Part shown: positions 16,314-60,657 of the stretch, in pieces
Numbering within the stretch: position 1 is the first letter of the stretch
How the letters are laid out: the number at the start of each line of letters is the position of its first letter
Source of the DNA: Hemileia vastatrix
Taxonomy: Eukaryota > Basidiomycota > Pucciniomycetes > Pucciniales > Zaghouaniaceae
Assembly: GCA_030280995.1 (NCBI GenBank)
Contig: JASXTE010000001.1
Span: 3,963,001-4,027,000 of the forward strand
Length of the DNA: 64,000 bases
Direction of reading: 5' to 3'
Notes under the pieces: generated by a model
What the model saw: the letters and a program-made list of their open reading frames with translations, nothing else
Database searches by the model: none
Told to the model about the DNA's origin: nothing
Position numbers and translations under genes: made by a program

Positions 16314-16589
16314 CCCAAAAATCACCAGAAACCAATAAAATCTGCAAGGGTTCAGCCCTTTACCAGACCACCGACAATATTCTACAAAGGTTCAGCCCTT
16401 TACTAGGATAAAACAACAAACAAAAACAAAAACAACAGATCTAGCAAGGGTTCAGCCCTATACCTAGATCCCTACTACCACTGATCCTGTACTGGTTCAG
16501 CCAGTTACCAGAATCACCAAATAACCAACCAGAAAACCAAAATCCAGAAGTCCAACAAGTAAGTTTCGTCAGAAGCTAGAGAATTTGAA

Positions 16590-16606
16590 CACCAGGTTGG
16601 GCGCCA
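16590..16606 (-). other. E2 primer binding site
   Basis: Minus strand reads TGGCGCCCAACCTGGT four to five bases after the LTR. E1 (26961-26977), E3 (19339-19355) and E0 (31196-31212) have related sites. TGGCGCCC is the start of a lysine-type PBS in other retroelements, but the tRNA here is not established. Confidence 0.65.
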
Positions 16607-16610
16607 AAAA

Positions 16611-19183: not shown

Positions 19184-19338
19184 CCCAATAAAGTAAGAAA
19201 ATAATTTAAACTTTTAAAATAAGAAATCCTCTTGCAGGCTAAAGAAATAAATTGATAAGAGTTCCAAAGAATTAGCCTCTTGAAGGCTAAGAAAGTCCTA
19301 GATCCAAGTAAGTCCTAGAAAAAGCTAGAGATTTTGAA

Positions 19339-19355
19339 CCCCATGTTGGGTGCCA
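19339..19355 (-). other. E3 primer binding site
   Basis: Minus strand TGGCACCCAACATGGGG, four bases inside the LTR edge. Confidence 0.65.
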
Positions 19356-19359
19356 AATA

Positions 19360-20554: not shown

Positions 20555-20558
20555 CTGC

Positions 20559-23500: not shown

Positions 23501-24378
23501 TTCTCTTCTCCAGACAACCGACCATCAGGTCCAAAATTTACATCACCTAATATATCAACAGTGATTCTTCATGTTTCAGAAAATTTTGGTGGATTCTTCA
23601 CCTAGGGAAAATTTAAGGATCTATTGATAGCCTTGGTCTTCTCAAAGGCGGATTTAATTTAGTTAGTAGCAGTTCATTAATTGTCTAGATTTTATTTGCT
23701 ACATTTTTATATTTTGCTGCTTCCACATCTACATAAAATTGAGGTGAAATATTTATTTTTGTGTTGCCATTAAAAATTTTGTTAAAGGAATTCTCTTCAT
23801 CAGCAGAATCAGAATCAAAAATAAGAAGAATGATAATTTATTACATTTTTATATTAAACCTTTTTCCCTTTTCCTTCATCTAATTTATCAACAAATTTTC
23901 CCAAACCTTTAATTCCCTTATCCATCATAAAATCACCTGTAAAAAAAGCTGGCAGTCTATCCTCTTGCTCAAGGACTGGAATCAAATTATCACAAAAACT
24001 GTTTTTTTGTGTTTTAATTATACTAAGATTTTTTATAGAATTTTGATGAAATAATTGCAGTTTACCCTCTTTCTGGAGGTCAGAAAATAAAACATTCCAA
24101 TTTTTATTCAACATAATATTTCCCATCTTCCCTCTTGATCCATTCTTGAATGTGATAAAATAACTTGACAGAGAAGTGAGACAAACCAAAAAATTGAAGA
24201 TATAATGACAATTTAATGTATTATTAACAGAAAATAATTGAGAATCCACTTGAATTATCTCCAAGTGAGCTGATGTATTAAAATCTGGGATCTCATGCTG
24301 GGGAGAGATTTCAACATTAGAGTGATCAGCCCCTGCTACACCAAAAAATGAGGGTCTCCATAATCCCCCTTTAAACAC
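20559..24378 (-). pseudogene. pol: E1 protease-RT linker and pol, part right of E3
   Basis: From right to left: linker (24378-23600), RT N-terminal part (KIPVVFHELWQ), RT core ending in IFIDDGGIKGP and RNase H (IYLAVDSSQ, ESRYCQPKLEL) in one open stretch 23022-22201, then integrase pieces 21433-20672 with SLDAVHI, MVDGGPEF and AEGMVERG, so the D,D,E triad is readable. The zinc motif is damaged (SFEECQRR, Cys to Phe). Many stops and frameshifts. The gene is cut at 20555 by E3 and continues at 6720. Confidence 0.85.
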
Positions 24379-26818
24379 AATTCACCAGAAGCCATCTTTT
24401 TAATACACCACTTTTTGGTGCAAGTACAACACTGACACAGAGTAGTGATCCCTGGCACTGTCTCCTAACCTTCATCTCCAGGAGGTGCCAACTGCACATG
24501 TAGCCTCCTCATATCCTCTCCAGTAATCTCCAAACTAATACCCATGCCAGACTGATAGCCAATCCAGGCCTCAAAATCCATCAAAAAAGAACCACCAAGA
24601 ACAGTTTTAACTTCCCCTCTGGCCACATAAAAGTGAACCTTACTGATAGATCTGCAAATACCTCTGAGGTTTCCACAGTACCAGTCTTAATTGGCAAGCC
24701 TATAATTGTTGCTTGCTCTAAAGAAATTAAATTAATATAAGACCCTGAATTGACCAGGGCCTTCACTTCTTAACCATTAAGAGTCACCACCAGGTAACCC
24801 AGGGGAGCAGAAAAATGTGTTTCAACATCCTCCCCAAACTTCTCAATATTCTCACAAATATATACCGCCTCTCCAGCAGAAACCCGTTGCCTTGTCAGAT
24901 GCTTCTTCTGCTTCTCTGCAAGTGCCGGACTAACAGTGAAAAGCTCCCCCAAAAATAAGGGAGTCTGAAGTTGATTCACCCTATTCAAAACATTGTCCAT
25001 TGCATTTTCTTGACCAGATACTACTGGCCACTTTTACTGGACTTTTGATTTATCAACCTTGGCCCTGGGCACTGCTTGAGGACCCACATTGCCATCTTCA
25101 TTACAAAAATCCCTAGCTCCATCACCAGCTTCTTTCACTAATCCCAATCCGTTGCTAGTCCTTCTTACTCCCTCCATTGGGATGGGACTGCTAAAACTTG
25201 GTCTGGGTAGTGACGCCAAAGGCACATACTCCTCAGAATCCAAATCATCATCTGGCATAGGCTCACCATTTAAATCAAATTTTCCATAACTAGGGGGCCC
25301 CATATCAGCCATCCCCTTCTGAATTCTATAAATTTTGTCCTTAGAGTAAGTTCTTGACTTGTTAATTTCCTTGCCAGGTTTAGCCCTTATTTGGCTCTGA
25401 ATGCTACTTTTAGCTTTAGTAGCAGCTGCTCTTCTAGCATCATTAACATCATATTTTCCAGCCATAAAGTTACCCTCCACTATAGCAACTGTTGCCAGCT
25501 CCAAACCACAAAAAGAAGTTGAAAATGTGGCGTTACTGCCCTCTTCCTCTTTACACTTGTCAGCTTTTCCACCACTTTTACCATCACCATTTTTACCACC
25601 CTTGGAATTATCATCATCATCCTTCAACTCTTCAAACCAGGCTCTTCTTTCAACTGCCATATTCCTTCTAACCAAATTGGAAGGCACTTGTCCATCACTG
25701 GGCTTGATGAAAGATCTATCAGGGAATTTATAAACCTTACAATCAAATAAAACTCTACCAGCAAACAAGTCTTTATCCAGAATGAAACATACTCCAGCTC
25801 TGTGCCCCCTCCTATTACAGTAGGAGCACACCTTTGGCTCATCATAGTCACCTCTAAAACCATTACCACCATTACCATTCCCATTCTTATTATTGCCTGA
25901 GAAGCGGTTTCCATTTCTATTGCCATTATAATTTTGACGTTCACATCCTCTAGATTGATAAGAGGTTGAAGTTGATGAAGAAGCAATTGGGGCCTTATTG
26001 GACTTCTGAGTCTCTTGGACAAAAATCTTTAATTGTTTAGTTAAATTGGCCAAGTGATTGAACATCTTGTTGTCCACAGTACCCTCAACTTTTATCACCG
26101 GTAGTCTTATTTGAGCCTTCTTGGCCTCTTGAGCTTTGACCATGATATTGTTTTTTTCTGCCAAAACTTCACCAAACTTGCTGAAATATTGAGTGCATGA
26201 CTCTTGATATTTGTCCAAAGCCATTAATTTTAGATGGGCCTGGATAATCTCCTTAATAACCTCCAATGCTGGTAATTTTTTTTTGCCATTGGGTAGTTCC
26301 TTCATTAAATCCTTTCTTGAAAGTTCCTTCAAGACGTCCATTTGAATATCACTACTACAAGCTGACCAGAAAAGATCCTTGGCTTGGTTTTCATGAACCA
26401 ATTTGTCCACCAGAATCAGATATTCAACTACTTCATTGAATTAAACGCATAACTTTATAAAATCAGCCATAGAAGAAACTCCACCCTTTGCCTGCCAATC
26501 ACCAACAATTTTATTAAGGTCCAACATAGTAAGTCTAACACCCCATCTATCAACCATAGCCTTTGACAAATTCACCCAATCCTTGTCCTTAAAAGCCTGC
26601 ATAGCAATGAAATCTTTTTCCACCTCCCTATCAGCAATAAAAAACCTAATCTACTTCACAATGTCCACATGAGAAGCACCATCAACAAAAGCAGCAGCTT
26701 TATACCTAATAATAAGACATTCAACCTCCTCCCAATAAAACTTTGGGCCATCCCAAGAAACAATCCTGAAAGAAGGAGTAAGAAGAAGAGAAGAACAAGA
26801 GGCAGAAGCAGAAGACAT
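24379..26818 (-). pseudogene. gag: E1 gag-protease
   Basis: Start at 26818 (MSSASAS). The longest open part is 26410-25034 with the capsid-like C-terminal half, the Asn/Gly linker and an intact knuckle CSYCNRRGHRAGVC, followed by IQKGMADMGPPSYG. Stops occur near 26650, 26445 and 25035. The protease site reads VNSGSYINLIS, with Asn in place of the catalytic Asp. Close relative of E3 gag. Confidence 0.85.
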
Positions 26819-34176: not shown

Positions 34177-34195
34177 ATTAGGATCCTTTCCAAAA

Positions 34196-34345
34196 TATCG
34201 ACGGCGCAACGTTACTTGAGGCGTAATCGTGGGGACCATCGGCGTACAAGTACCTGTAAAGGACGAGTGGAGGCGAGAAAACGACGAACGTCATACGTCA
34301 CGTGATAAAAGTTTTTGCTGCGAACGGGAATCGAACCGCGCTCCA
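34196..34345 (+). other. CpG-dense patch in the E4 leader
   Basis: I count 20 CpG in about 150 bp, against almost none in the kilobases around it. It begins just after the LTR and ends in the tRNA-like segment. E5 has a weaker version at 43215-43325. Confidence 0.75.
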
Positions 34346-34373
34346 AAACTTAAGTTCATATACTGACTAAAGA
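34316..34373 (-). other. Antisense tRNA-like 3' end in the E4 leader
   Basis: The minus strand reads GGTTCGATTCC (a consensus T-loop / Pol III B box) followed by CGTTCGCAGCA and a T-run. E5 has GTTCGAAAC then ACGGTCGCAGCA and a T-run at 43291-43310. The T stem is imperfect and no 5' acceptor strand is found, so it is not an intact tRNA gene. On the sense strand it could be a displaced primer binding site. Confidence 0.5.
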
Positions 34374-34549
34374 TCATATATATTGTGGTAATTATTGTTA
34401 TTACTATTTGTGGGTTACTCTTCACTCTTCATTCGCTACGTATTTCCTTTTACTCAGCACTCTGTAAGTGGCATTAATTTGCTCATTTTGCAGGGGGAGG
34501 TGTCTGGTAATTTGAAATTTAGTTTTATTATTATATTTTTTTTTATTTT

Positions 34550-35240
34550 TCCTGGTTGACCATAATAGAGCAATAACTGTTCTTAGTCCCAGAAGTAATA
34601 AAATAATTATATTTTAATATTAATTATTATCATTTTTCAGTTGACAATTGTCCTGATTAATTTGAATTTTAATTGTTCCAGTTGACAAATTGTCCTGACA
34701 ATAATATTTTTTTTATTAATAGAATAATTATATTTTAATATTAATTATTATAATTTTTCAGTTGACATTTGTCCTGATTAATTTAAATTTTAATTGTTCC
34801 AGTTGACAAATTGTCCTGACAATAATATTTTTTATTAATAAATAATTCACATTTAATTACTTCAGTTGACTTTGAGTCCTGGTAATCCAATAAATCTTTT
34901 TAATTAATAAAATTCATATTTAATTACTTCAGTTGACATTAAGTCCTTGTAGTTAAGTGATCAGTAATAAAATTTTAAAACAAAACTTCATATTTAATTA
35001 CTTCAGTTGACATTAAGTCCTGGTAGTTAAGTGATCAGTTAAAATAATTTTTTTTTAATTAATAAAGATTCATATTTGATTATTTCAGTTGACAATAAAT
35101 CCTGGTAATAAATTAGTTGATTTAAATCCTGAAAATAAAAAATTAATAGAAATTCTAATTTATTTATACAGTTTATTGTATTATCCTGGTTTTAAATTTT
35201 TTTATTTATTAATTTTATTTAAGTTGATTTTTATCCTAAA
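34550..35240 (+). repeat. E4 leader hairpin repeats (CAGTTGAC...GTCCTG)
   Basis: About eleven units at 34638, 34679, 34759, 34800, 34863, 34930, 35004, 35086, 35114, 35171 and 35220: CAG TT GAC, 4-6 nt, GTC CTG. CAG pairs with CTG and GAC with GTC. A longer version (CTGGTTGAC ... AGTCCCAG) is at 34550-34594, and E5 has three like it at 43500-43720. Later units decay towards the gag ATG. Confidence 0.75.
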
Positions 35241-35343
35241 AAGATTTTTTTTATTATTTTTATTTTATTTCTGTTAAATAAAAAATTTAAAATAAAGACT
35301 AATTAATTTTTTTCTCTTTCCTTCATTTCAGTAGAATCTTAAA

Positions 35344-38300
35344 ATGACTGACCAAAGTGGTTTTGCTGCACGTGAAGAAGAACTAGACTTAATTGATTAT
35401 GATGATCCTACTTCTGTAATTTCTCCTTTAACAAGAAGAATTTCTCATACTAATAAATCCTTGCCCCAAACAGGATGTAGAGATGGAAGAAGTAGAAATC
35501 CTAGAGGACAATACTCAGGATCAGAAGCCCATGACGAACCCACCAGAAGAGCTTCCAAAAGGCTTCAGGATAAAAAATATGCCATTGTCTCAGCAGGTAA
35601 AGAATCTGTCTACCCACATAAAGGAGTTAAGGACAGACAGCTTGAGACTAAAGGTAAGGGTAGATGCCTTGGAAGAAAAGGTGAGAAGAACAGATACTTT
35701 TCTCCAAGAGAAGAAGAAACCTCTTTCTCCCAGGGATCAACAACAATTGGCTCCCCAATCCCAAAAGATGGTGGAAGTGTCCAAGTGGCAGTGGGACTGG
35801 CTCAACACTCAGTGGGACTACTTGGCTCAAAACCAGCATCAGTTACCTCAGGTAGGTCCATCAAGGCCCACCCAGGCCAACCCCACTCCTCCCCACCCTT
35901 ATCAAGGAGGCAAAAGAAGAAGGAAGCCCAATATGGTGATACCCAGCAAACCCTGGTACGTCCCTCTATTGATTCTCAAGTGCCTTTTCTTGTGGCTGAC
36001 TCTGTTCTTTCAGGTAAATCTGGAAGGCAGGATGAAACCTTGAGACCTATAGAGGCTGGGAATAGTAGCCAGATATCTCATGTATCTAATCCATTACTTT
36101 TAATTGCTACCTCAATGATTAATCCTGATATGGCTGTGATTGATGATACTCTTGACCCTGAGTTCTATGAGATTCTGGAAAGTTACTCAGTTTCCTTATT
36201 GAGAAACACTCCAGATGTAGCAAGAATTAATTATGAGCACTTGAGAGATATTATTGCCAAGCAAAATCATATAATGAACAATATGCAATTGACTCAGAGA
36301 TATAATAGTTTGTTAACTGATCAGGGTTATCAAGCATTAAGGAGTGAAGCACAGAGAGTCTCTGATGAATTGTCTCATTACAAAGCAACCCATGAAAAGA
36401 AAGTTGCTTTATGGAAAAATATAAAAAATGATTTGTCTAAACTAAAAGATACTGTATCTTCCTGTTGCCAGGAGGTAGAGATAGATAAGATAAATCTGAA
36501 AAGATTGAATGACCATTTTTCATCTTTTCAACATAAGAATCAATTATCTTTTGCAACTATCAATGAGAGTTTATCTAGTCTTCCAAGAATGAAAACAAGA
36601 AAAACAACTATTGAAGAAAAATTGAACTCATTGTTAAATGACCAAAAATATTCTGACATTTCTGTGAAGGAACATATAGTGCAGGATGCTCAAATGGTAC
36701 CTGTGGCTAGTTCATGTAAAATAAAAATAGATCCAGAAATACCTGTTGAAAACACTGAGTTTCCATCAAAAAATGATGATGCATCAGGATCTGCAACAGA
36801 ATGATTAAACAATGAGATTTCAGCACAATTAGAGAAATTACAGCTACTTCTTACTCAGAAACAAGCTAGTACTAAGGAGACTCCTTCAAATCAAAAGAAT
36901 TGGCCAAAACTTGACCAGTACCCAACATTTGATGGTGATTCTTCCTCTGATTGGCAACAATTTATTTGCAGAATTGATAACTTAAAAAATTCTTACAAAC
37001 TCCCAGATGAGGAAATTGTGTCCAAGTTAATTTCTTTGTTTACTAATGTTGCCCTGATGTGGTATGAATCTGTTCTCCTGGATGGGAATGACTACTCATG
37101 GGAGGATTGGAAGAAATTAATTAAAGCACAATTTGGTGGCTCCAAGTTCAGAATGGCTCAACAAAGGCAGTATGAGGAAACTAGATATAGCTCTTCTACT
37201 GATAAACCTATTAGGTTTTTAATGAAACTTGTAAAAATCTTAAGGGCAATGGACCCAAATATGGAGTTTGATTTATGGAAGGACAGGATCCTCTATAAAT
37301 TACCAATGTCTCTGAGAGACTTGATAGTGGCTAGGACTGAGTTCTCCAAAAAACCCTCTTCTTTCATTAATACTTGCAATGAGATACTTTTAAAAAATAA
37401 GTATGATGCAAGAAGATTCATTCCTAGGACCCCTTTGGAGAAACCCTCCACTTACCAACAAAAACCTTTAGAAAAGGTTGGTAAACCTTCTGCCCCTGTT
37501 GCACCAAAGAAGTATGCAACAAACACTTGCTTCAAGTGCAACAAGCCTTGGCAGAAAGGCCATGTTTGTGACAAGAAGATAAATCTTGTAGAACAAACAG
37601 AGGAGCATGCTGATGACACAGTGGCACTGGACGATACATCAAGTGATTGTGCCAGCAATATTTCATATGAATCTCAACAAGAAATCTTGATGCTGGAAGA
37701 AGATATTCATTATTTAAATACTATTGACATTGATAATAATGATTTATCTAAAGTTGAGGATGCTGAGATAATAAGGAACATTGAGGATAACTCAATTGTT
37801 ATTGCCCCTCTTAAGGCACCAGTCTTGATCAATGGAACCAGCATTGAAGTTGTTCTGGATTCTGGAGCTGGAGGAAGTGTAGTATCTGAAAGAGCACTTG
37901 CTTCAGTAGATCAAGACTATAAATCTAAACTGATGCCTATCATTTCTGAAAATTGGAGAGGGTATGACTCTGTTTTGTCCCCCATTGGTAAATACAAAGC
38001 CACAGTGTTTTTTAAATATAACCATGGTTTTGTAAGAGCTATTTGTGATTTTGTTGTCATGAAAAATGATAACTTGAGCAATTGGTTTATTGTAGGGAAT
38101 GATATTTTAACCAAGTATGGCATAAAATTGGATCCTTCAAACCAATTTTTCACAATGGGGATGAATGGGAAGAGAAAATTTAAAATTTCCTCCCCTAAAA
38201 AATTATTAAACCCAGAATGGAACACATGTAATTCTGTGGTTCAATATAAAGGAAGATCTACAAAGGAAATGCATGCCCTTATGTCTGAAATTGACAATTC

Positions 38301-41400: not shown

Positions 41401-42210
41401 TGTCAGCCAGGCTACTAGACTTACCCAGTGAAATAATTAATTATTTACTGGATGAAGCCACACCTTATCATTTTAATTATTATTTAATTATAATTTAGTT
41501 ACATTAAAATTAGTTATAATAAATTAACTAATTACAGAATGATAAAATTAAAAAATTAAATAAATAATTAAAATTAAACATATAAAATTGTCCCTTATAT
41601 TTTTCTCTAACACCGTGCTCATTTGACAGGTTGGAAAAAATAAAAAGTTATATTAAAAAATAGATATTAAGATAAAATAAGATTTTAATATTCAAATAAT
41701 ATTAAATATATACAAAAAATTCAAATTTCTTATTTAGAATTGACTTCTACAGTAAATATTAAATAAATTGATGTATTTCTTACATACTCTGTAAATACAT
41801 CTTTTTGACGCCTTCTTTTTAGAATAACTTTATTATTTGAAATACTCCTTCTGGAATATTCTTTTCTCTTTCTCATACTACTGTTTTTAGAATTTGATTG
41901 CCGTGCTTTGTCTCTCCTTTGCCTATATAAGGCCTCTCTTTTTGTTGTCTTTTAACCATTCTTTTACCAACTTACTTATTACTACAACTACAATATAACA
42001 CTTATTTCTTATAATTTATACCTTTAGTATTTACAAGGACGTAATTCTAATCTATAACTTATATAAATATTTTAAATCTACCTCTTATTATTGAGTAAAC
42101 ATCATCTTTGATTGAGAAATACGTACTAAATTATTGAGAGTCCAATAAATCCTTAAAATCTTCGTACAAACTCCGTACCAAAGCTTCTAGACCAAAAGTG
42201 AACCTTGACA
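41401..42210 (+). repeat. E4 3' LTR
   Basis: 810 bp, same length as the 5' copy. Confidence 0.9.
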
Positions 42211-42215
42211 ATTAT

Positions 42216-43200
42216 AGTTAAAAATTCAAAATTTTAACTTATAATATAATTAAATAAATAAATTAAATTATAGTATTAAAATAAAACTTTTATATCATAT
42301 GAATTATGAATATTGAGCAATTTCTTGACTCATAATTATGTCATTAAGGTATTAAATTAGTCAAAACATTTTATTAAATTAATTACTAATGTTGTATTCT
42401 AAAATTTAGTAATAATATTAAATTAATAAATTGTTTTAACCTAATTTATATCTTACACTAATAAAATGGGTTATATTATTTAATATCTTATGTTCCAGAC
42501 TTAATTAATTAATTACACTAATTATTTTATTAAAATATTTTAATTTTTATGTCTCACTTAAAATGGGCTATTATCAAACGTGTTATAAATTGAATTAGTT
42601 AATACTTCAAGTGTTTCAATCTTATTTAATTACTCACTTATTTTTAAAGATTTGTTTGGGGTTAAATTGGTGGAATTTTTGGGCTCTTACTTATTTTTTA
42701 ATTAATTGTTTTATATTTTTCCCTTACAGATTTGGTACACTTAAATTTAACTCTTACTTATTTATTATCTTCTTTTTTATAGGATATAATTTCTTGTGGC
42801 GCTTCAGAGGGCCTTGGAAAACCCCCTGTAGCTCTATCACTTATTATACACCCAAACTTGAATATATTTTTTAATATAATATGTTTATTATTATTTTTAT
42901 TAGTATTACAATTCTAATTTAAATTTTATATAAATAACTACAGGTTGAAATAGTCTAATAGTAATAATAGTTTCTTCTGCGCAGAGAAAGTAATACTTAT
43001 TTTAAATAAATATATTATAATTTAATAAGCCTCACTTTTGTGTCAAAACCCAAGAAACTCTTGTCGCTTTCATCTTTTCTAAAATAACTATATTAATTTA
43101 TTAATTAGTTTCTCTACCTTCTAAACTTTTACCTATTTTTCCTCCTCCTCTTCTCTGTTCCCTCCATTTTCTTCTCCTTCTTCTAGACAACGGGCCCACA
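42216..43200 (+). repeat. E5 5' LTR, second part
   Basis: Continues 33366 after the E4 TSD and matches 50340-51339. It lacks an 18-bp segment with the TATA box that is present in the 3' LTR at 50934-50951. Confidence 0.9.
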
Positions 43201-43883: not shown

Positions 43884-46800
43884 ATGTCCATTAGTTTGGC
43901 TAACAGCATGGATAACTTACATGTGGATGAAATTGAAGTGGATAATGACACTGAATCTGTAGGTTCCTCTAAATTAACTTACAAAAGTTATTCAGCTGAC
44001 AAAAAACCTTCAGGACATAGAAATGGTAAGAGAAGTGGTAAACCCCCCTCACCAAACACCTCTGAAAGAAGTAAAACCTCTAATAAATCAGGACAATCAA
44101 CTCAAAGGTATAAAAATAAAAAAGATACCTCTAACCCAACAGGTAAACAATCTGTCCAGTCACATCAAAGAACTGAAGGCAGAAAGCATGAAGGGCAAGG
44201 CAAGGGTAGACACACTCTGGAAGCAGATGCAGGAATTATTAAATCCCAAACAGGCTCAAACTCCTCATTTCACAGCCTCTCAGCCTCAGCCTCAACCTCA
44301 GCCCAATCAGGTACCCAGCTCCTTCACACAAAATCAAAGCACTCTGCAATTGGAACAGTGGAAATGGGATTACTTGATGAGCCATTACCAACAGAATGTT
44401 CAGCAACCAGCTCAACACCCTGGCCCATCCAGGACACCAACCTACTATCCATCTCCTCAGCCCCATCCTTATCAGGGAGGCAGAAGAAAGAAGGCACAGG
44501 GGAAGTTTCCTCCCTTACCATGGTGAGTAATTTGTTTGATAAACATGTTGGTATGTATAATAACAAAGCTTCTTCAGGTAATATTGTGGATTCTGGTGAA
44601 AGAAAAGTCAAACCTTTAAAAAGACAACTTCCTTTAATGAGTAGCCCCAATGATGTAATTAGAAAATTATCATTTGATGAACCTTTACATTTGACTTCTA
44701 CTTCTTTAATTAATCCTTCTCTTACAATTAAGAATGACTCTGTTTCCCCTGAAGTCTATACCTTAATTGAGAAAACTTCTGGAGAAATATTGAAAGATAC
44801 CCTTGATTTTAATGTTGTAAAAGACAAAAATTTAAGAGATGTGTTAATACATGAGAGTGATAGATTAAATAATTTGCACTTACATTGTAAAGTAACTTCT
44901 TCTGTACAAGATACAGCTTATTTTAAAATCAAAGAAACCTTGAATATTGTTCATGGCTAACAAAAACAAATAAGGAGTGACCATAGATGTATCTCAGATA
45001 AGAATATCAATCTGCATAAACCCTTGAGTGAATTGAAACCCCTTATCGAGGAAAATTATTCATTGAAAAATGAAATTAAATATCTACAAAATGAGTTTAA
45101 AAAGCTAAAAAATGATTTCTATGCACTGAGTGCCAAACACACAGTTTCTGAGGAAAGAAATGTTTTATCTCTTGCAAAAGTAAATGACCAAATGTCTGAA
45201 ATTCCAAGGATAAGAAACTATGTGTCTGACCTGCAGGAAAAATTTTCAACCTTAACCATCAATAATTATGGTATAAATGAGAATTCTGCCCATAAGCTGC
45301 ATAATAATAAAGAAAAAGAACCTGAACAGAGTTCCTCCTTTCTTCCTCATACTTCAGCCATTAAACAAACTGAAAATGAGTCTGTAAAATCTTTTGCTAC
45401 TAGCAAAAAATCTTGTGATGGTCATGTACCAGCTGTTTCTGTAAATAATGAAATTTATGAACACCTGGCTAAAATTCAGGAATTATTAATGATGAATAAT
45501 TCAAACCAAAAAATGGACCATCCCAGTAGTCAGAAAAATTGGCCTGAATTGGACCAATATCCTACCTTTGATGGTGATTCTTCTTCTGATTAGCAACACT
45601 TTATCCAAAGAATTGATAATTTAAAGAGATCTTATAAACTACCTGATGAGGAAATTGTTTCTAAGCTAATTTCTTTATTTTCCAATGTAGCTTTGATGTG
45701 GTATGAATCTGTTCTTTTAGATAACAATTATTATACATGGAATGAATGAAAATCCTTGATTGAGAATCAGTTTGGTGGTTCAAAATTCAGGTTGGCTCAG
45801 CAAAGACTGTATGAGAATACTAGATATGTATCCTCCTCTGTTGAAAAACCCATTTTTTTTCTTATGAAAGTAACAAAAATCCTGAGAGCAATTGATCCAA
45901 AGATGGATTATGATAGTTGGAGAGATAAAATCTTGTATAAATTACCAAATTCTCTTAGAGATTTAATTGTAGCTAGAACTGAGCATGTGAGGGAAAACTC
46001 TTCTTTCATTAATATCTGTAATGAGGTACTACTCAAACATAGATATGAACCAAATAATTACATTGTTAAATCTTATCATGATCAAAATAAACCATCTACC
46101 AAGCCCCCAGAAAAATCTGGTAAACCCTCTGCCCCAGTTGCACCTAAAAAATATGCAACAAATTTTTATTATAAATGTAACAAACCATGGAAGAAAGGTC
46201 ATGTTTGTGACAAGAAAATTCATCTTGTTGAACAAAATGAAGACACTGATGAAGCTGAAATCGATATCAATAATTCTTCTAGTGACTGTGAAAGTAATAT
46301 CTCCTATGACAATGACTCTGTTAAAAATGTTTTAATGTTGGAACAGGATGTCCATTATTTAGATAATATATCTGAAGAATGTGTATTGGATTTATCTTCA
46401 GTGGAAAATTCTGAAATAATTAAAGATATTACTAACAGTTCTATAGCCATATCCCCTTTGAAAGCACCTGTTATCATTAATGGTAAAAATGTTGATGTAG
46501 TTCTTGACTCTGGTGCTGGAGGAAGTGTAGTGTCTGAAAAAGCTTTAGCTTCAGTAGATAAGGATTATTTGAGTAAATTATTACCTATAACTTCTGAAAA
46601 ATGGAGAGGGTATGGTTCTACTTAATTCCTATTGGAAAATACAAAACCTCTGTATTCTTCAAATATAATGGTGGTTTTTTCAGAGCTATTTGTGAATTGT
46701 TGTCATAAAAATGATAATTTAAGCAATTGGTTTATTGTGGGTAATGATATTTTAACCAAGTTTGGTGTGAAATTGGACCCAGCAAATAATTGCTTCACCT

Positions 46801-50043: not shown

Positions 50044-51339
50044 TGTCAGCCAGGCTATACCAGGAGCCCAGTAAATTGTATGTTAATCTATTGGAGCTTA
50101 ATGAGGGCAACATTTTATGCATTTTATGTATATAAATTAATATTATATTGCATAATAAAATTATATAACAATTGTATTATAATATAACTAAAATAAGGTT
50201 TATATTAAATTTATTATTAAAAAAATTATAGATAAAACTAAAACTCATTAAATACTTTATATTCTATAAAATGTTGGCGGATATTTTATGTATTTAATAC
50301 TTATAAATTATTAATTAATTTATTAAATATATTATAGTTAAAAAATCAAAATATTAACTTATAATATAATTAAATAAATAAATTAAATTAAAGTATTAAA
50401 ATAAAACTTTTATATCATATGAATTATGAATATTGAGCAATTTCTTGACTCATAATTATGTCATTAAGGTATTAAATTAGTCAAAACATTTTATTAAATT
50501 AATTACTAATGTTGTATTCTAAAATTTAGTAATAATATTAAATTAATAAATTGTTTTGACCTAATTTAATTCTTACACTAATAAAATGGGCTATATTAAT
50601 TAATATCTTATGTTCCAGACTTAATTAATTAATTACACTAATTATTTTATTAAAATAGTTTAATTTTTATGTCTCACTTAAAATGGGCTATTATCAAACG
50701 TGTTATAAATTGAATTAGTTAATACTTCAAGTGTTTCAATCTTATTTAATTACTCACTTATTTTTAAAGATTTGTTTGGGGTTAAATTGGTGGAATTTTT
50801 GGGCTCTTACTTATTTTTTAATTAATTGTTTTATATTTTTCCCTTACAGATTTGGTACACTTAAATTTAACTCTTAATTATTTATTATCTTCTTTTTTAT
50901 AGGATATAATTTCTTGTGGCGCTTCAGAGGGCCCCTTGCCTATATAAGGGCCTTGGGAAACCCCCCGTAGCTCTATCACTTATTATACACTCAAACTTGA
51001 ATATATTTTTTAATATAATATGTTTATTATTATTTTTATTAGTATTACAATTCTAATTTAAATTTTATATAAATAACTACAGGTTGCAATAAGTCTAATA
51101 GTAATAATAGTGTTTTCTGCGCAGAGAAAGTAATACTTATTTTAAATAAATATATTATAATTTAATAAGCCTCACTGTTGTGTCAAAACTCAAGAAATTC
51201 TATTCGCTTTCATCTTTTCTAAAATAACTATATTAATTTATTAATTAGTTTCTCTACCTTCAAACTTTTTCCTATTTTTCCTCCTCCTCTTCTCTGCTCT
51301 TTCCATTTTCTTCTCCTTCTTCTAGATGACTGGCCCACA
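50044..51339 (+). repeat. E5 3' LTR
   Basis: 1296 bp. TATA box CTATATAAG at about 50940-50948. Polypurine tract AGAGTGAGATAG just before it. Confidence 0.9.
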
Positions 51340-54278: not shown

Positions 54279-57200
54279 TTATTTAGATTTAAATTTTTTC
54301 AAGAGATTTTTAAGATCAGAGATTTCATTTTCTGGAATCCACTGGTCATATTCACTTGATTTATTTTTAAATCTTAGTAGATACTCAACTCCCTTTTCTT
54401 TTGTAAGGTGTCTCTTTTTAAGTATCTTTTCAATTTCTGCTTTTTCCACTATTTCTTCAGGTTGCTGTTTATGCCTTCCTGATCTTCTTGGAAAGAGAGC
54501 AGTATCATTAGAATGGTATGGTTTTATAAGAGAAATAGGAAATACTGGATGTTTTCTATCATAAGGTGCATATAGAATAACCTCAACAGCATTATTACCA
54601 ACCATCTTTTTAACTACAAATGGTCCAATGAATGGATCCTTCAATTTAACATTACCATTTAAATTGAAATGTAGCGTTGAAATAAGGACTTCATCACCCT
54701 CTTTGAACATTTGTTCTTTATGGGCTTTATCCCATCTTTTCTTTTCATACTCAAAAGCCTTATTTATACATTCTTGAGCATGTTTTCTGCATAGTTCCTG
54801 CATCTGAAGAAAAGATTTAGTACCTGGATGAATATCCAATCTAGGTAACTTATTAAGAGTTTTAGCAGGGGTATTAGGTACATAACCCAACCATAACTCA
54901 AATGGCTTTTTGCCAGTGACAGAATGTACTGTACTATTATATGCAAATTCTAAACCTGGGATAAGGGTTACCCAATCATGCGTGAATTTGTCATTGTCTT
55001 TAAAATTAAGACCAAAAGCACAGTATCTTCTTATCATATCTTCTAAGGTTTGTATCATTCTTTCTGCTAGCCCATCAGTTTGTGGATGGTGTGCTGTAGA
55101 AAGTTTTAATTGACACCCTGAAACATCCATAAGTGACGTCCAGAACTCAGAAGTAAATTTAGGATCTCTGTCAGAAACTATTGCTTTGGGGAAACCTGCT
55201 GTATTTAACATTTGTGTCCACCATAAAAAAGCTAAGTCCTTTGCAGAAACCTCTTTGTGGGTAGGAATAAATTTACACATCTTTGTAAATCTATCTACAA
55301 TTACCCAGCAGGAGTTATAACTCTTATGCCCTGCTATTGGCAAACCTGTTACAAAGTCCATGTTAATGATTTCCCATGGAGCTTTTGGTTGCTCAATTTG
55401 TTGTAATAAACCAGCTCTCTTTCCTGTTAATCTTTTAGATTTTTGACAAGAATCACATGTTTCAACATATTTCTGAACATCCTCAGACATGTTAATCCAC
55501 CAAGCTGTGTTTTTTACTCTGGTTAATGTTTTATGGTAGTCAAAATGACCTGCTAATATATCATCATGACATATACTTAACATTAACTCCTTCATTGAAG
55601 GGGGAATTACAATTACATTACTTAATTTTTTCCTGTAATATATAAAACCATCCTCAATGGAAAACTTTCCTTTCTCTAATGCCTCTTTATACTTATCTGG
55701 TAATGTTTTTATTAAAACATTCATTGAAGCATTAGATGGATCATTTAATATTGTAGTTAATTTACTTAAGTCAGGATCTGAATTATAATTATCAAGAATT
55801 GATTGCATAAATTCATCCTCAAGATCTACAATATAAATGCCATAAATGTTAATAATCTCTGATTCAGGAACATAAGCAGGATTATCATCATTATTAGGCA
55901 GAGGTACTCTAGATAACAGATCTACATTAGAGTGCAAGGTTCCTGCTCTATGTGTAATAGTCATCCGTCCTCTGTATTCTTGTACAGCTAATTGCCATCT
56001 AAACATGTGTCTATTAGGAGTTTTCATGTTTAAGAGTGACTTAACTGCACTACAGTCAGTTATTAACTCAAATTTTTGGTCTTCAAGGTAATAATGTAGC
56101 TTTTCAAGAGCCCATACTACTGCCAAACATTCAAGTTGAGTAGCACCATATTTTAATTCACTACTTCTCAGAGTACGTGAAATATAGCAGATTACTACTT
56201 CTGACATTTTACCTTCAATAAGTTGTTTTTGATGCAAAGCAGCACCCAGTCCAATAAAACTTGCATCTGTATATAATACAAAAGGTAATTGGAAATCTGG
56301 TAATCCCAAGATAGGAGCTGTCATTAAGCATTCTTTCAACTTATTAAAAGCTTGTTGTCTTTCATTATTCCAAATGAAAGCTTCTGATTTCTTTATCAGT
56401 GTGGTCAGTGGTGCAGCAATTGATTGGTAGTTTTTTATATATTGTCTATAATAACCACACATTCCAAGAAAAGATTGTACATCCTTCACATTTTGAGGAA
56501 TGCCAATATTCTTTATTGCAGCCACTTTATTTTGGTCTACACATATTTGTAAGCCAGATACAATATGACCAAGCACTTTTAAAGATTCAAACCCAAATTT
56601 ACATTTTTTCAATGCAAGGGTCATTTTTATTTCATCCATTTTCTGAAATACTTTCCTTAAATGGATTAAGTGTTCATCAAAAGTTTTAGAGAACACTATG
56701 ATGTCATCAATGTATACCATTAACCATCCCTCAATCATTTCATTATGGAATGTTATATCCATTAACTTTTGAAATACTGATGGAGCATTCTTTGGTCCAA
56801 ATGGCATTCTGACATACTTATAAATTCCCATGTGTGTTGTTATCAACAAAAAGTTCTGTGAATTCTTTTCAACAGGAATTTGATGGTACCCTTTATTTCC
56901 ATCTAGGCAACTTATATATTTAGCACCTTTAAGGGTAGCATGTATAGAGGCAATCCTTGGCAAGGGATAAATATCATCTACTGTAAATGTATTTAATGCT
57001 CTATAATCACCGCACAGTCTTGCTTTATCTTGTTCATAAGAAATCAGCACTGGTGATATTACACAATATTTTGGTGTTGTTTCAACCTTCTCAAGAATGT
57101 TCATCTTTAATAACATCTTAATATTATCCTCTATGTCTTTCCTCTTCATTGGTGAAGCAGGATATGGTTTCTTTTTAAGACTAGCAGGAATATTATCCAT

Positions 57201-60146
57201 GTCACAGGTTAAACTAATTTTCATTTCATGATCTTTTACAAGGCCAAGTTCATTTGTACCATGTGCAAAAGCCATTGGAAAAGCTTTAATTAATTCCAAA
57301 ATATTATCTTTCTCAGTTTCACTTATCTGAGTGCCAAATGATGCTTTTGAAATTTCTGTTTCCAGAAGTTCCATCTCATTGGATTCTCTTCCTTTAGACG
57401 GAGAATTTGTTACTGACTCAATGTGTAAGACTGTGTTAAAAGAATTTATTTTAAATTTCCTTTTACCATTCATGCCAATTGTAAAATTATTATTAGCAGG
57501 GTCTAATTTTACACCAAATTTAGTCAGAATATCATTTCCAATGATAAAACAGTTACTACAATTTGTATTATCCATTACTACAAAGTCACAAGTTACCCTT
57601 ACATAACCATGTTGGTGTTTAAAGAAAACAGCAGCTTTGTATTTACCAATGGGGTGTAGTACTGATCCAAAACCTCTCCAATTTTTATTCTGAAGTGGTT
57701 CAAGCTTAAACTTGTAGTCACTATCAATTTTCTGTAATGTATTAGTGGAAACAACTGAACCAGCAGCTCCTGTGTCCAATACTATATTAACATTTTCACC
57801 AGAAATGATAGCTGGAACCGTGATAGGTGTCATTTTAAAGTTATCAGCTTGTATATCCTTAATGATTTCAGCATCCTCAAAATTCATTAAAGATTCATTT
57901 GAGTCCATATTTAATATTGGATTTTCAAAGATGGACAAATCATCTTCCAACATACAGACTTCATTTTCATCACTATATGAGATATTGCTGTCATAATCAC
58001 TTGATTCTTTACTTTTTTCAGTTTCAGTTTCAGATTCACATTGATTTTCAACAATATTTATGTTTTTCTCACATTTGTGACCTTTTACCCAAGGTTTGTT
58101 ACACTTATAACAAGTATTTGTTTCATACTTTTTAGGTACTACAGGTGCAGTAGGTTTTTTCTGCTTCTCCTGAAGTGTTTTTGAATTCTGAGATTTTACA
58201 GGTTCAACATTTTGTTTATAAGTGGAATACCTTGATTCATACTTATGGTTCAATAATATTTCATTGCAAATATTAATAAAATCAGAATATTCAGTAACAT
58301 TAAATGTTCTAGCTACAACAATATCTCTGACAGATATAGGTAATTTGTAAATTATCTTATCTTTCCATAAGTTAAAATCCATATGAGGCTCAATGGCTTT
58401 TAAGATTTTGTTTAAAGTCATTAAAAATACCATAGGTTTGTCACCATTCAACGGATTATACCTAGTTTTCTCATACAGTCTCTGCTGAGTAAGCCTGAAT
58501 TTAGAACCTCCAAATTGTTTTTCAATAAGTTGTTTCCATTCAGCCCAAGAGTAGTCTCTACCCTCACTTAAGACAGCTTCAAACCATAATAAAGCAACAT
58601 CCTTAAATAAAGAAATTAATTTTGATGTTATCTCTTCATCTGGTAACTTATATGAGAATTTCAAGTTGTCAATTCTTTGAATAAAATGTTGCCAATCAGA
58701 GCTGGCTTCCCCATCATAAGTTGGGTACTGATCTATCTTAGGCCAGTTCTTCTGATTGGATTTTATCTCACTAATCTTAGGTAAATTCAACAACTCATTT
58801 ACTTTTGATAAATGGTCTTGTATTTCTTCCTGCACGGATTTGTGACTTACATTTTCAGATTTGACACTACCACCAGATGGTTTTAATTGTGGTGGTACAG
58901 GGAAGGAATGAGATTCACTTTTGCCAATGAAAGGATTATTATTATATTGATTATACTTATGATTATCCTGGTTCATTAGTAGATTGGCAGTTTCAATCTC
59001 AACTTTAGTTAATCTTTGTAGCAGCTCAGAGACACTTTGATTTGTCTGTGCAAAAGATAACTTTGTTCTTGATTCAGTTTTTAATAAGTGTGTTTCATAT
59101 AATTTTTCTAACTCACAAAATTTGTTTGAAAGGTCATTATATTTATTACTTAATGAATCATATTTAAGAGTTAGAGACAAATGTTCCTTCTCTAATTCTT
59201 TATTACGTGTTGCTAATTGAGAAATGTTCAATGTTAAGGATGAAATTGTATCACTAGTGAGCTTAACTGTCTGTTCCTCACAATCAGTCATTCTATTCCA
59301 CAATGCTGAAACAATTCTATGGACAGTTGGGTTATTGTTAAAATATTCCATGTCCTCCTTTTCAATTCTCTCACTCTCCTGTGAACTACTCATCTCACTA
59401 GTAGGTGGTTGCAACTGAGGATTAACTGTATTATCATTGTATATAGTACTGTTATTATGGATAAAAGACAAGTCAGGTGTATCTACTCTAAAACCCAAAT
59501 TTCTTAAATCCTCCTCTATTTTTTGTACAGATTTAACATCAATAGAATTACCTATATTGTAATTATCAGTATTATGTTTAATCTGAGGGGGTAAGTTACT
59601 TACCAAGGGATGGTTGCCAGGCCTGATTTTTGGCGCTTTTTTCCCTTGTAAGGGTGAGCTGAGGAAGTCAGATGAGGGGGTGGATCCCTGTTGCAACTGT
59701 GGCTTGTCCACTGTTGGTGAAACCAGTCCCATTTCCATTTGTCTACCAGGATTTTCTCCTGGGAGTGAGTGGACCCTCCTTGGGTAGGGGGTTGCTGATT
59801 TGATTGACTGGGCTGGCCTCCCTTTAATTCTGCCATTGCCTGATTCATCTGCTGAAATCCTACCTTGCAATTGTTTTGCAACTGCTCTACTTCTTTGAAC
59901 ATGAGAGATTTTGATTCCTCTAGCTTCAGAACCTGTTTGGCCAGGTGGGACAGTTGATCCTGAAGAGGAGGAGACGTCTTTTTGATAGTTATCTTTTTTA
60001 AAAGGGCGTCCTTTTCCTCTACACTCATGCTTTCTGGTTGGGGGTACTGTTGTCCCTCCATGGTGATGTCCTGGAAAGTTTTTATTAGCTTTAGACCTGG
60101 TATTATAAGCAGGCTGTTCACTTACACTATCCTGAGGAGCACTCAT
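54279..60146 (-). CDS. gag-pol: E6 Gag-Pol polyprotein, intact 1955 aa
   Basis: One frame with no stop. Domains in order (rough residues): basic Ser/Gly-rich N-terminus 1-200; coiled-coil-like 290-400; capsid about 470-640 (WPKIDQYPTYDGEASSDW start); knuckle CYKCNKPWVKGHKC about 680; protease LDTGAAGSVVS about 790; RT with YIDD about 1145; RNase H (LYTDAS) about 1293; integrase HHCC about 1527-1568 (CDSCQKSK); D,D,E about 1598, 1658 and 1695 (MDFVTG, VSDRDPKF, DGLAERM), the last two some 36 apart; chromodomain about 1902-1954. All catalytic residues I looked for are present. Gag and Pol are fused in one frame, as in several fungal chromoviruses. The first 180 codons overlap a +1 ORF. Confidence 0.93.
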   Translation of the reverse strand: MSAPQDSVSEQPAYNTRSKANKNFPGHHHGGTTVPPTRKHECRGKGRPFKKDNYQKDVSSSSGSTVPPGQTGSEARGIKISHVQRSRAVAKQLQGRISADESGNGRIKGRPAQSIKSATPYPRRVHSLPGENPGRQMEMGLVSPTVDKPQLQQGSTPSSDFLSSPLQGKKAPKIRPGNHPLVSNLPPQIKHNTDNYNIGNSIDVKSVQKIEEDLRNLGFRVDTPDLSFIHNNSTIYNDNTVNPQLQPPTSEMSSSQESERIEKEDMEYFNNNPTVHRIVSALWNRMTDCEEQTVKLTSDTISSLTLNISQLATRNKELEKEHLSLTLKYDSLSNKYNDLSNKFCELEKLYETHLLKTESRTKLSFAQTNQSVSELLQRLTKVEIETANLLMNQDNHKYNQYNNNPFIGKSESHSFPVPPQLKPSGGSVKSENVSHKSVQEEIQDHLSKVNELLNLPKISEIKSNQKNWPKIDQYPTYDGEASSDWQHFIQRIDNLKFSYKLPDEEITSKLISLFKDVALLWFEAVLSEGRDYSWAEWKQLIEKQFGGSKFRLTQQRLYEKTRYNPLNGDKPMVFLMTLNKILKAIEPHMDFNLWKDKIIYKLPISVRDIVVARTFNVTEYSDFINICNEILLNHKYESRYSTYKQNVEPVKSQNSKTLQEKQKKPTAPVVPKKYETNTCYKCNKPWVKGHKCEKNINIVENQCESETETEKSKESSDYDSNISYSDENEVCMLEDDLSIFENPILNMDSNESLMNFEDAEIIKDIQADNFKMTPITVPAIISGENVNIVLDTGAAGSVVSTNTLQKIDSDYKFKLEPLQNKNWRGFGSVLHPIGKYKAAVFFKHQHGYVRVTCDFVVMDNTNCSNCFIIGNDILTKFGVKLDPANNNFTIGMNGKRKFKINSFNTVLHIESVTNSPSKGRESNEMELLETEISKASFGTQISETEKDNILELIKAFPMAFAHGTNELGLVKDHEMKISLTCDMDNIPASLKKKPYPASPMKRKDIEDNIKMLLKMNILEKVETTPKYCVISPVLISYEQDKARLCGDYRALNTFTVDDIYPLPRIASIHATLKGAKYISCLDGNKGYHQIPVEKNSQNFLLITTHMGIYKYVRMPFGPKNAPSVFQKLMDITFHNEMIEGWLMVYIDDIIVFSKTFDEHLIHLRKVFQKMDEIKMTLALKKCKFGFESLKVLGHIVSGLQICVDQNKVAAIKNIGIPQNVKDVQSFLGMCGYYRQYIKNYQSIAAPLTTLIKKSEAFIWNNERQQAFNKLKECLMTAPILGLPDFQLPFVLYTDASFIGLGAALHQKQLIEGKMSEVVICYISRTLRSSELKYGATQLECLAVVWALEKLHYYLEDQKFELITDCSAVKSLLNMKTPNRHMFRWQLAVQEYRGRMTITHRAGTLHSNVDLLSRVPLPNNDDNPAYVPESEIINIYGIYIVDLEDEFMQSILDNYNSDPDLSKLTTILNDPSNASMNVLIKTLPDKYKEALEKGKFSIEDGFIYYRKKLSNVIVIPPSMKELMLSICHDDILAGHFDYHKTLTRVKNTAWWINMSEDVQKYVETCDSCQKSKRLTGKRAGLLQQIEQPKAPWEIINMDFVTGLPIAGHKSYNSCWVIVDRFTKMCKFIPTHKEVSAKDLAFLWWTQMLNTAGFPKAIVSDRDPKFTSEFWTSLMDVSGCQLKLSTAHHPQTDGLAERMIQTLEDMIRRYCAFGLNFKDNDKFTHDWVTLIPGLEFAYNSTVHSVTGKKPFELWLGYVPNTPAKTLNKLPRLDIHPGTKSFLQMQELCRKHAQECINKAFEYEKKRWDKAHKEQMFKEGDEVLISTLHFNLNGNVKLKDPFIGPFVVKKMVGNNAVEVILYAPYDRKHPVFPISLIKPYHSNDTALFPRRSGRHKQQPEEIVEKAEIEKILKKRHLTKEKGVEYLLRFKNKSSEYDQWIPENEISDLKNLLKKFKSK
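59600..60061 (-). CDS. Overlapping +1-frame ORF inside E6 gag
   Basis: 153 codons from an ATG in a strong context (ATCACCATGG), in the +1 frame relative to gag, 85 nt after the gag ATG. It has a patterned helix-like part (DQLSHLAKQVLKLEE, FKEVEQLQ), a Gln/Ser/Pro linker, the motif KWKWDW and a basic end HPYKGKKRQK, and stops after Pro-Trp (TGG TAA). E4 and E5 have related proteins in the same frame and place, although their gag-frame sequences here are hardly alike. Function unknown. Confidence 0.55.
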   Translation of the reverse strand: MEGQQYPQPESMSVEEKDALLKKITIKKTSPPLQDQLSHLAKQVLKLEESKSLMFKEVEQLQNNCKVGFQQMNQAMAELKGGQPSQSNQQPPTQGGSTHSQEKILVDKWKWDWFHQQWTSHSCNRDPPPHLTSSAHPYKGKKRQKSGLATIPW

Positions 60147-60657
60147 ATTGTTCAGAATAACAATATTTTACGTCTACAAAAGGAAAAAACTCTGTGGAAT
60201 TAGTAGACAAAAGATATTAGTAATTATATTACTAATAAAAAAGCAATGGAGCTTACCCTGAATTTATATCTTTATTTATTTAAATAAAATATAAGAAAAA
60301 TTCGAAAAAATCTGTTAAAAATATAATAATAAGTTTAACTAGACCTCTATAAGGGTGAATAATTAGCTTACCAAGCTTTAGCCAAATACCAATTTTATTG
60401 GGTGTTATATTGGTGTCCAAATACCAAGTGAAATTGGGTTTATATTGGGTACAGTTACTACTGTAAATATCTAATTTTTATGATAAAAAATTAGTACAAT
60501 TATTATAAGGATTCTTTTCCGCAATCAATGAGTTATGATGACCCACTAATATGCAGCAGACCCAAATATTTGGTTAATTTTGAGTTGTACTAAGGTAAAA
60601 ATCACGTCCCAAGGCTTACACTAAATAATAAGTAAAATATAAGGAAAGACCCCCAAT
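60147..60657 (-). other. E6 untranslated leader
   Basis: About 510 bp. It starts (minus strand) ATTGGGGGTCTTTCC after the LTR. Several CCAAATACCAA/TTGG pairs at 60380-60460 suggest secondary structure. No clear tRNA-like PBS. Confidence 0.55.

What the first reader, a model, noticed from the sequence alone, without database searches (positions are those of the whole stretch)
59600..60061. Conserved overlapping +1-frame gene inside gag of three chromoviruses
E6 (59600-60061, -), E4 (35483-36043, +) and E5 (44023-44526, +) each have a long ORF in the +1 frame inside the first part of gag. The encoded proteins share order and motifs: a patterned IKEL/LxxL segment, K/Q-W-K/Q-W-D-W/Y, a Pro-rich linker, HPY-K/Q-G-basic, and an end at Pro-Trp. 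The gag frame over the same bases is poorly conserved between elements, so selection seems to act on the hidden frame. Its offset from the gag ATG is identical in E4 and E5 (139 nt). I know of no described accessory gene of this kind in fungal Ty3/Gypsy elements.
Basis: partly seen in the sequence, partly recalled or inferred. Interest (0 to 1): 0.87.

Follow-up and report, generated by a model that had tools for sequence, protein, structure and literature searches.

The report
Spliced second gene inside retrotransposon gag
Three families of virus-like jumping elements in this genome appear to use optional splicing to read a second, conserved protein out of the stretch that also encodes their capsid protein, a trick known from complex retroviruses and one worm element.

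Summary
E4, E5 and E6 each carry a conserved +1-frame protein under the start of gag. It is best read not as an ORF begun at an internal ATG but as exon 2 of a spliced gene sharing the gag ATG.

Intron 1 (55-58 nt) joins the first 7-25 Gag codons to the +1 frame; its acceptor lies nine bases before the internal ATG in all three elements. Intron 2 (52-58 nt) sits exactly at the conserved Pro-Trp end and leaves W-stop after splicing.

The genome itself supplies the evidence. Places lacking intron 1 occur in all three families (6 E6-type, 28 E4-type, 2 E5-type; reversed-pattern controls 0). Some also lack intron 2 or leader introns, and one copy lacking four introns is a complete LTR insertion with a target-site duplication: a reverse-transcribed spliced RNA.

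Both frames are kept open in the window elements. Unspliced RNA would make Gag-Pol, spliced RNA a 163-195-aa coiled-coil protein with a basic tail. A CERV/Rev-like role in handling the element's own unspliced RNA is my best single guess, untested.

The parts
60126..60146 (-). E6 exon 1 coding part (gag ATG to AGT, 7 codons), shared by Gag and the accessory protein
   Evidence: Joins in frame to exon 2; adjoins exon 2 in intron-less copies L041-L046
60071..60125 (-). E6 intron 1, 55 nt, GTAAGT...GCTAAT...CCAG
   Evidence: Absent exactly in the 6 genomic places found with the junction pattern, reversed control 0
59604..60070 (-). E6 exon 2: +1-frame coding (coiled coil, KWKWDW, HPYKGKKR, ends IPW); contains nearly all of the given ORF
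59552..59603 (-). E6 intron 2, 52 nt, GTAAGT...ACTGAT...ATAG; splicing leaves TGG TAA
   Evidence: Absent in L042/L067, 1 of the 6 E6-type intron-1-less copies
60312..60371 (-). E6 leader intron A, 60 nt, GTAAGC...ACAG
   Evidence: Absent in L042 and L045; ends read
60192..60256 (-). E6 leader intron B, 65 nt, GTAAGC...ACAG
   Evidence: Absent in L042 and L044; L045 lacks 83 nt from the same donor to a later acceptor
54279..60146 (-). E6 gag-pol single ORF, 1955 aa, with RT, RNase H, integrase and chromodomain; protease matches below cut-off
35344..35415 (+). E4 exon 1 coding part (24 codons)
   Evidence: junction copies
35416..35473 (+). E4 intron 1, 58 nt (window copy GTAATT; GTAAGT in 29 of 30 copies of one sample, the window copy being the thirtieth)
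   Evidence: absent in 20 of 20 mapped junction copies, of 28 places found
35474..35955 (+). E4 exon 2, +1 frame, ends SKPW after splicing
35956..36013 (+). E4 intron 2, 58 nt, GTACGT...GCTGAC...TTTCAG
   Evidence: Absent in 6 of 20 mapped intron-1-less copies (two of them identical over the exons compared) and in 2 of 39 gag-core-chosen copies that keep intron 1
43884..43958 (+). E5 exon 1 coding part (25 codons)
43959..44013 (+). E5 intron 1, 55 nt, GTAGGT...AGCTGAC...TTCAG
   Evidence: Two E5-type places lack 55 nt here
44014..44522 (+). E5 exon 2, +1 frame, ends LPW
44523..44577 (+). E5 intron 2 (predicted), 55 nt, GTGAGT...TTCAG
   Evidence: By homology; donor GT in 7 of 8 and TCAG|GTAAT in 8 of 8 further copies; no search for intron-2-less E5 copies was made

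Best explanation
Each element makes two proteins from one 5' region by optional splicing. Supported by DNA: unspliced sequence keeps gag open from the gag ATG; removal of intron 1 joins the first 7 (E6), 24 (E4) or 25 (E5) Gag codons to the +1 frame, and with intron 2 removed the reading ends at W-stop; spliced forms exist as reverse-transcribed copies. The spliced product is 163 (E6), 185 (E4) or 195 (E5) aa: short shared N-terminus, one long coiled-coil helix, a Trp-rich helix (W-K/Q-W-D), a Pro-rich linker, the motif HPY-[KQ]-G followed by basic residues, and Pro-Trp at the end. Inferred: that both RNAs are translated, and that the protein is a nuclear-acting regulator that oligomerises through the coil, binds nucleic acid through the basic tail, and lets the element's own intron-containing RNA leave the nucleus or escape splicing, so that Gag-Pol can be made and full-length RNA packaged. 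I put the spliced-gene structure at about 0.95 and the CERV/Rev-like role at about 0.3; the confidence below is for the structure plus a protein product.
For: Introns 1 and 2 computed in all three elements, all six lengths 1 mod 3. A frame-joining intron with its acceptor exactly 9 nt before the +1 ATG arises in 0, 1 and 5 of 20000 dinucleotide shuffles of the E4, E5 and E6 stretch before that ATG (the splice patterns counted were chosen after seeing the introns). Intron-1-less places: 6 E6-type, 28 E4-type, 2 E5-type, reversed control 0 in each of these searches. The 6 E6-type copies show four different sets of removed introns, so several events. L067 is LTR-to-LTR, lacks four introns and has target-site duplication CATAC; L070 lacks intron 1 and has CTGTT. 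Splice signals kept in E4 copies chosen by the gag core: GT at donor 1 in 38 of 38 and AACAG at acceptor 1 in 38 of 38 with data. +1 protein conserved between families. Leaders poor in ATG (0 in 511 nt of E6, 0 in 1163 nt of E4, 3 in 682 nt of E5; shuffle means 6.7, 16.4, 11.6) fit scanning of unspliced RNA to the gag ATG. Coiled-coil register: a/d hydrophobic fraction 0.77-0.82, reached by 1-11 of 5000 shuffles; AlphaFold helix 37-73 of E5 at pLDDT about 90.
Against: No RNA, peptide or ribosome data. Intron-less copies are rare among those sampled without selection (intron 1 missing in 0 of 38 with data, intron 2 in 2 of 39), so splicing may be infrequent or spliced RNA poorly packaged. Within-family selection on +1 is weak, and about 65 of the 150 best E5 copies have +1 stops (my count of the listing). 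Donor 1 is broken in 2 of 8 E5 copies. No Pfam domain above cut-off. The structure is of low confidence outside one helix (mean pLDDT 60, pTM 0.25). Nothing tests nuclear location, RNA binding or export. In E5 and E6 the protein ends at PW whether or not intron 2 is removed, so the purpose of intron 2 is unexplained. The first E5 junction search, with the window copy's own letters, gave 0 places.
Confidence: 0.9

Rival explanations
1. The +1 protein is translated from unspliced RNA by leaky scanning past the gag ATG to the internal ATG; the introns are incidental.
For: E6 has CACCATGG at the internal ATG, its gag ATG has A at -3 but no G at +4, and no ATG lies between the two. In E4 and E5 the internal ATG is also followed by G.
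Against: Splicing at these sites has occurred in all three families and joins the gag ATG in frame to exon 2. Exon 1 of E4 and of E5 contains further ATGs before the internal one. The acceptor at a fixed 9 nt from the internal ATG would be unexplained. Both routes could coexist.
Confidence: 0.08
2. The spliced protein is real but does another job: a structural or RNA-chaperone partner of Gag, or a copy-number control or restriction protein of the element, rather than an RNA-export factor. (Shares the gene structure of the best explanation; differs in function.)
For: A coiled coil and a basic tail fit many roles; it shares its N-terminus with Gag; the families look very large (15795-19243 first-look candidates per query, only 150 scored each).
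Against: None direct. An element that needs intron-retained RNA in the cytoplasm has an evident need for an export or anti-splicing factor, and a functionally studied Ty3/Gypsy parallel (CERV) does that (PMC10309623, passages, section 9).
Confidence: 0.5
3. Splicing here is an accident or a host defence by-product; the spliced RNA has no protein role and the +1 frame is open by overlap with gag.
For: Within-family selection is weak; +1 openness is not rare under gag-synonymous shuffles for E5 and E6.
Against: Between families the +1 frame is by far the better conserved frame, with codon position 3 the most variable; splice sites, phase and the W-stop junction are shared by three diverged families.
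Confidence: 0.03

Closest known systems
CERV of Cer1 (Ty3/Gypsy element of C. elegans), PMC10309623
   Same: Spliced mRNA that starts in gag and then switches to another frame; potential leucine zipper; candidate basic NLS (KRKK); accessory to an LTR retrotransposon that must export unspliced RNA (passages, section 9).
   Different: [quoted passage not shown] Here 163-195 aa, wholly inside the first part of gag, no globular domain predicted. No sequence comparison with CERV was run.
Rev/Rex of complex retroviruses
   Same: Small regulator made from spliced RNA of an element that also uses its unspliced RNA (Rev: passages of PMC10309623; Rex: abstracts listed). Basic and oligomerisation segments of Rev and its overlapping frames are recalled.
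   Different: No evidence here of RNA binding, an export signal or function; different gene position.
shGAG of Arabidopsis Ty1/Copia EVADE, PMC8892269
   Same: Optional splicing in an LTR retrotransposon makes a second, separately translated mRNA; intron-retained full-length RNA is enriched in the nucleus (passages).
   Different: There splicing plus early termination gives more Gag; here splicing changes frame and gives a different protein.
Additional ORFs of plant LTR elements, PMC7264820
   Same: Extra conserved ORFs in LTR elements, with splicing reported for some (passages).
   Different: [quoted passage not shown]

Membership tests
Chromovirus (Ty3/Gypsy LTR element with chromodomain) | Pol with RT, RNase H, integrase in that order and a C-terminal chromodomain | tested here: met
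   E6: RVT_1, RT_RNaseH, Integrase_H2C2, rve, Chromo above cut-off; protease hits (RVP and others) below cut-off. E4 and E5 pol were not scanned.
Chromovirus (Ty3/Gypsy LTR element with chromodomain) | Two LTRs and target-site duplication | tested here: met
   Repeat pairs for E4, E5, E6 at 97.8, 95.2 and 99.7%; E6 flanked by CTCTC, L067 by CATAC, L070 by CTGTT. LTR ends of E4 and E5 not resolved.
CERV-type spliced accessory gene | Spliced from gag start into another frame | tested here: met
   (from genomic copies, not RNA)
CERV-type spliced accessory gene | Large protein with globular domains, part encoded downstream of pol | tested here: not met
   163-195 aa, all within the first 0.7 kb of gag; only helices predicted in the E5 model
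CERV-type spliced accessory gene | Sequence homology to CERV | not tested
   CERV sequence not in hand
CERV-type spliced accessory gene | Needed for export of genomic RNA | not testable with these tools
   needs RNA localisation
Rev/Rex-like regulator | Basic RNA-binding/NLS motif plus oligomerisation domain | tested here: inconclusive
   Basic residues after HPY-[KQ]-G near the C-terminus in 3 of 3; coiled-coil register; no binding data
Rev/Rex-like regulator | Leucine-rich nuclear export signal | not tested
   no predictor used

The most novel reading that the evidence does not exclude
The many copies in one genome, including retro-copied splice forms, would make it a natural laboratory for this.
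Probability: 0.3. Interest if true: 0.9.

Novelty: new variant of a known kind. Interest (0 to 1): 0.78.

Why it matters
LTR retrotransposons are usually annotated as gag plus pol; a survey of fungal elements says that they usually encode these two ORFs (PMC3248453, passages). A conserved spliced accessory gene hidden in gag of abundant elements would mean that part of their life cycle has gone unseen, that gag annotations in such elements mix two genes, and that retro-copied splice forms in assemblies can reveal splicing of transposon RNA without any RNA data. It would give a further setting, besides complex retroviruses and Cer1, in which to ask how a retroelement exports intron-containing RNA.

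Tried and rejected
Internal-ATG gene by leaky scanning as the sole route: set aside once junction copies were found. Return of the spliced frame to gag by intron 2: intron 2 is 1 mod 3 in all three elements and gives W-stop, so there is no fusion to the Gag core. First E5 junction pattern, from the window copy: 0 places. Eight further E5 copies showed that the window copy differs from them there, and the second pattern found 2. First selection count in 30 E4 copies (4 observed against 15.9 expected gag-synonymous/+1-changing variants) is biased, because those copies were ranked by the +1 protein; the sample of 40 chosen by the gag core (39 used, L097 dropped as unalignable) gives a weak skew (expectations with transitions weighted 4:1, while the sample's own ratio is nearer 1.7). 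Protein database: no homologue of the +1 protein (9 and 657 candidates), but E6's gag core and protease region has no hit there either (6337 candidates), so this says nothing about distribution. Viral contigs: 599 pattern matches, none a relative. Pfam: nothing above cut-off for the +1 proteins. The structure was not searched against libraries because only one helix is confident. A count of unspliced E6 copies as denominator was asked and never answered. A 67-nt deletion in L056 starts at an AGGTAA and does not end in AG; it was not taken as an intron.
Full report
What is there. The window holds three related Ty3/Gypsy-type elements, E4 (+), E5 (+) and E6 (-), with terminal repeat pairs of 97.8, 95.2 and 99.7% identity. 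E6 has an uninterrupted 1955-aa gag-pol ORF with RT, RNase H, integrase and chromodomain; in E4 and E5 the gag-pol reading is broken into several ORFs. Under the first 0.6 kb of gag each has a long +1-frame ORF. The three +1 proteins align well with each other (E4-E5 score 241, z 27.6; with E6 118 and 122), the gag frame over the same bases poorly (82, 53, 54), and the third frame scores 47, 46, 31. Nucleotide identity by +1 codon position is .58/.66/.38.40/.55/.34 and .47/.57/.27 for the three pairs, the pattern of a coding frame.

Gene structure. Reading the DNA, the ORF is bounded by splice signals. Nine bases before the internal ATG of all three lies an acceptor (AACAG|GATG in E4, TTCAG|GACA in E5, CCAG|GACA in E6) preceded by a branch-point-like CTAAT or CTGAC, and upstream of it, in the gag frame, a donor. 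Removing this intron of 58 (E4), 55 (E5) or 55 nt (E6) joins gag ATG codons to the +1 frame...DDPTS|DVEM...DTES|DIEM, MSAPQDS|DITM. The conserved Pro-Trp end is itself a donor, G|GTACGT, G|GTGAGT, G|GTAAGT; removing 58, 55 or 52 nt there leaves TGG TAA in all three. All six introns are 1 mod 3. In dinucleotide shuffles of the sequence before the internal ATG, a frame-joining intron with its acceptor exactly 9 nt before the ATG appears in 0, 1 and 5 of 20000, and one at any place in 36, 38 and 95 of 20000 (E4, E5, E6). The patterns counted were chosen after seeing the introns.

Evidence from the genome. The window lies in a 747.6-Mb assembly without a name. A search for the predicted exon1|exon2 junction of E6 (up to 2 mismatches) gave 6 places, for E4 (up to 3 mismatches) 28, and for the E5 family (up to 3) 2; the reversed patterns gave 0 in each case. 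An earlier E5 pattern with the window copy's letters gave 0. Mapping the 6 E6-type and the first 20 of 28 E4-type places to the window copies shows that each lacks intron 1 (in L064 and L065 the aligner puts the same 58-nt gap one base earlier). In the E6 type one (L042) also lacks intron 2 and two leader introns, L044 lacks one leader intron, and L045 lacks one leader intron plus a leader stretch that runs from the other leader donor to a later acceptor. In the E4 type 6 of 20 also lack intron 2, two of which (L061, L062) are identical over the exons compared and count once. The two E5-type places lack 55 nt at this site, with ambiguous gap placement. L067, the longer stretch around L042, is an LTR-to-LTR element lacking four introns and otherwise full length, with a 5-bp target-site duplication CATAC; L070 lacks intron 1 and 1.3 kb of pol and has CTGTT. 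Target-site duplications were not looked at for the E4- and E5-type copies. So spliced RNAs of these elements were reverse transcribed and, in the two cases examined, integrated by the usual LTR route. In 39 E4 copies chosen by the gag core, 2 (L072, L099) lack intron 2 but keep intron 1, and 0 of 38 with data lack intron 1.

Conservation of the signals inside families. In 30 E4 copies ranked by the +1 protein, donor 1 is GTAAGT in 29; the window copy is the exception with GTAATT. In the gag-core sample donor 1 begins GT in 38 of 38 (GTAAGT in 34) and acceptor 1 is AACAG in 38 of 38; donor 2 begins GT in 35 of 37 and acceptor 2 ends AG in 36 of 37 (my counts, leaving out L097, and L109 or L072 and L099 where they have no data). 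In 8 E5 copies acceptor 1 is intact in 8, donor 1 in 6, donor 2 in 7, acceptor 2 in 8.

Two frames at once. If only the +1 frame mattered, frame 0 should collect stops. Shuffling synonymous codons of the +1 frame leaves frame 0 open in 0, 0 and 2 of 5000 trials (E4, E5, E6), so frame 0 is kept open too. The leaders between LTR and gag ATG hold 0 ATG in 511 nt (E6; shuffled mean 6.7), 0 in 1163 nt (E4; 16.4) and 3 in 682 nt (E5; 11.6), as expected if ribosomes scan unspliced RNA to the gag ATG. In the gag-core sample, shared variants fall at gag codon positions 1, 2, 3 in 28/160, 10/161, 23/161 sites, lowest where a change alters both frames; the direct contrast of frames is weak (35 against 49, p = 0.029; 17 against 20 for shared variants, p = 0.41). 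Stops occur in exon 2 of the +1 frame in 7 of 39 and in the gag frame (first 670 nt) in 11 of 39, some of these copies being incomplete. Among the 150 best-scoring copies per family, stops inside the +1 match are listed in 0 (E6), 6 (E4) and about 65 (E5; my count). Many copies, of E5 above all, are simply decaying.

The protein. Spliced lengths are 185 (E4), 195 (E5) and 163 aa (E6). A helix of about 37 residues has a coiled-coil register (a/d hydrophobic fraction 0.82, 0.82, 0.77; reached by 11, 1 and 11 of 5000 shuffles for E5, E4, E6) and, in the E5 model, pLDDT near 90; a second helix carries the Trp motif and the rest is disordered. Near the C-terminus all three have HPY-[KQ]-G followed by basic residues. 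There is no Pfam family above cut-off. The protein collection used gave no relative, but E6's gag core and protease region has none there either, so distribution outside this genome is unknown.

Mechanism. Supported from DNA: optional splicing that decides between Gag-Pol and a different protein with the same first residues. Inferred: that both are made, and that the second works on RNA in the nucleus. The argument is need and analogy. The element must send intron-containing RNA to the cytoplasm. Cer1 of C. elegans, also Ty3/Gypsy, does so with CERV, made by splicing from gag into another frame, with a potential leucine zipper and a candidate basic NLS; a CERV stop mutation abolishes detectable cytoplasmic genomic RNA (PMC10309623, passages and section 9). 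In Arabidopsis EVADE intron-retained RNA is enriched in the nucleus (PMC8892269, passages). The protein here is smaller, differently built and placed, and not shown to be related to CERV. I give this role about 0.3; other roles for a coiled-coil, basic-tailed Gag partner remain open.

Novelty. Six searches of the held library (listings and abstract starts seen) turned up no spliced accessory gene in fungal LTR elements. A survey of fungal LTR elements says that they usually encode gag and pol, with no occurrence of 'intron' or 'splic' in its text (PMC3248453, passages). [quoted passage not shown]). The kind (spliced overlapping accessory gene of an LTR element) is known; this instance, wholly inside gag and revealed by retro-copied splice forms, is a new variant.

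Noticed in passing
G000:C631:36200079-36248975; G000:C84:15397760-15414084: Gag-core or +1 matches at exact spacings, seven E4-type copies 8033 nt apart and three E6-type copies 7933 nt apart, look like tandem arrays of one element.
   Followed up: no
window 34181-35343 and 60147-60657: The long leaders of E4 (1163 nt) and E6 (511 nt) contain no ATG at all, against 16.4 and 6.7 expected from shuffles.
   Followed up: yes
L045, leader about 28 to 110 nt before the gag ATG: An E6-type intron-less copy lacks 83 nt from the donor of leader intron B to a later acceptor (TTGTAG), suggesting alternative 3' splice sites.
   Followed up: partly
window 9816-26410: Other Gypsy-like ORFs on the minus strand, with a different gag, gave no significant match to the spliced proteins.
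   Followed up: no
window 42200-42220 and 50325-50340: The LTR ends of E4 and E5 are not clean at their shared border (both places carry ATTATAGTTA); possible nesting, not resolved.
   Followed up: no
L070, pol region: An intron-1-less E6-type copy also lacks 1.3 kb of pol (about 2999-4297 from the gag ATG), perhaps a template jump or a further splice.
   Followed up: no
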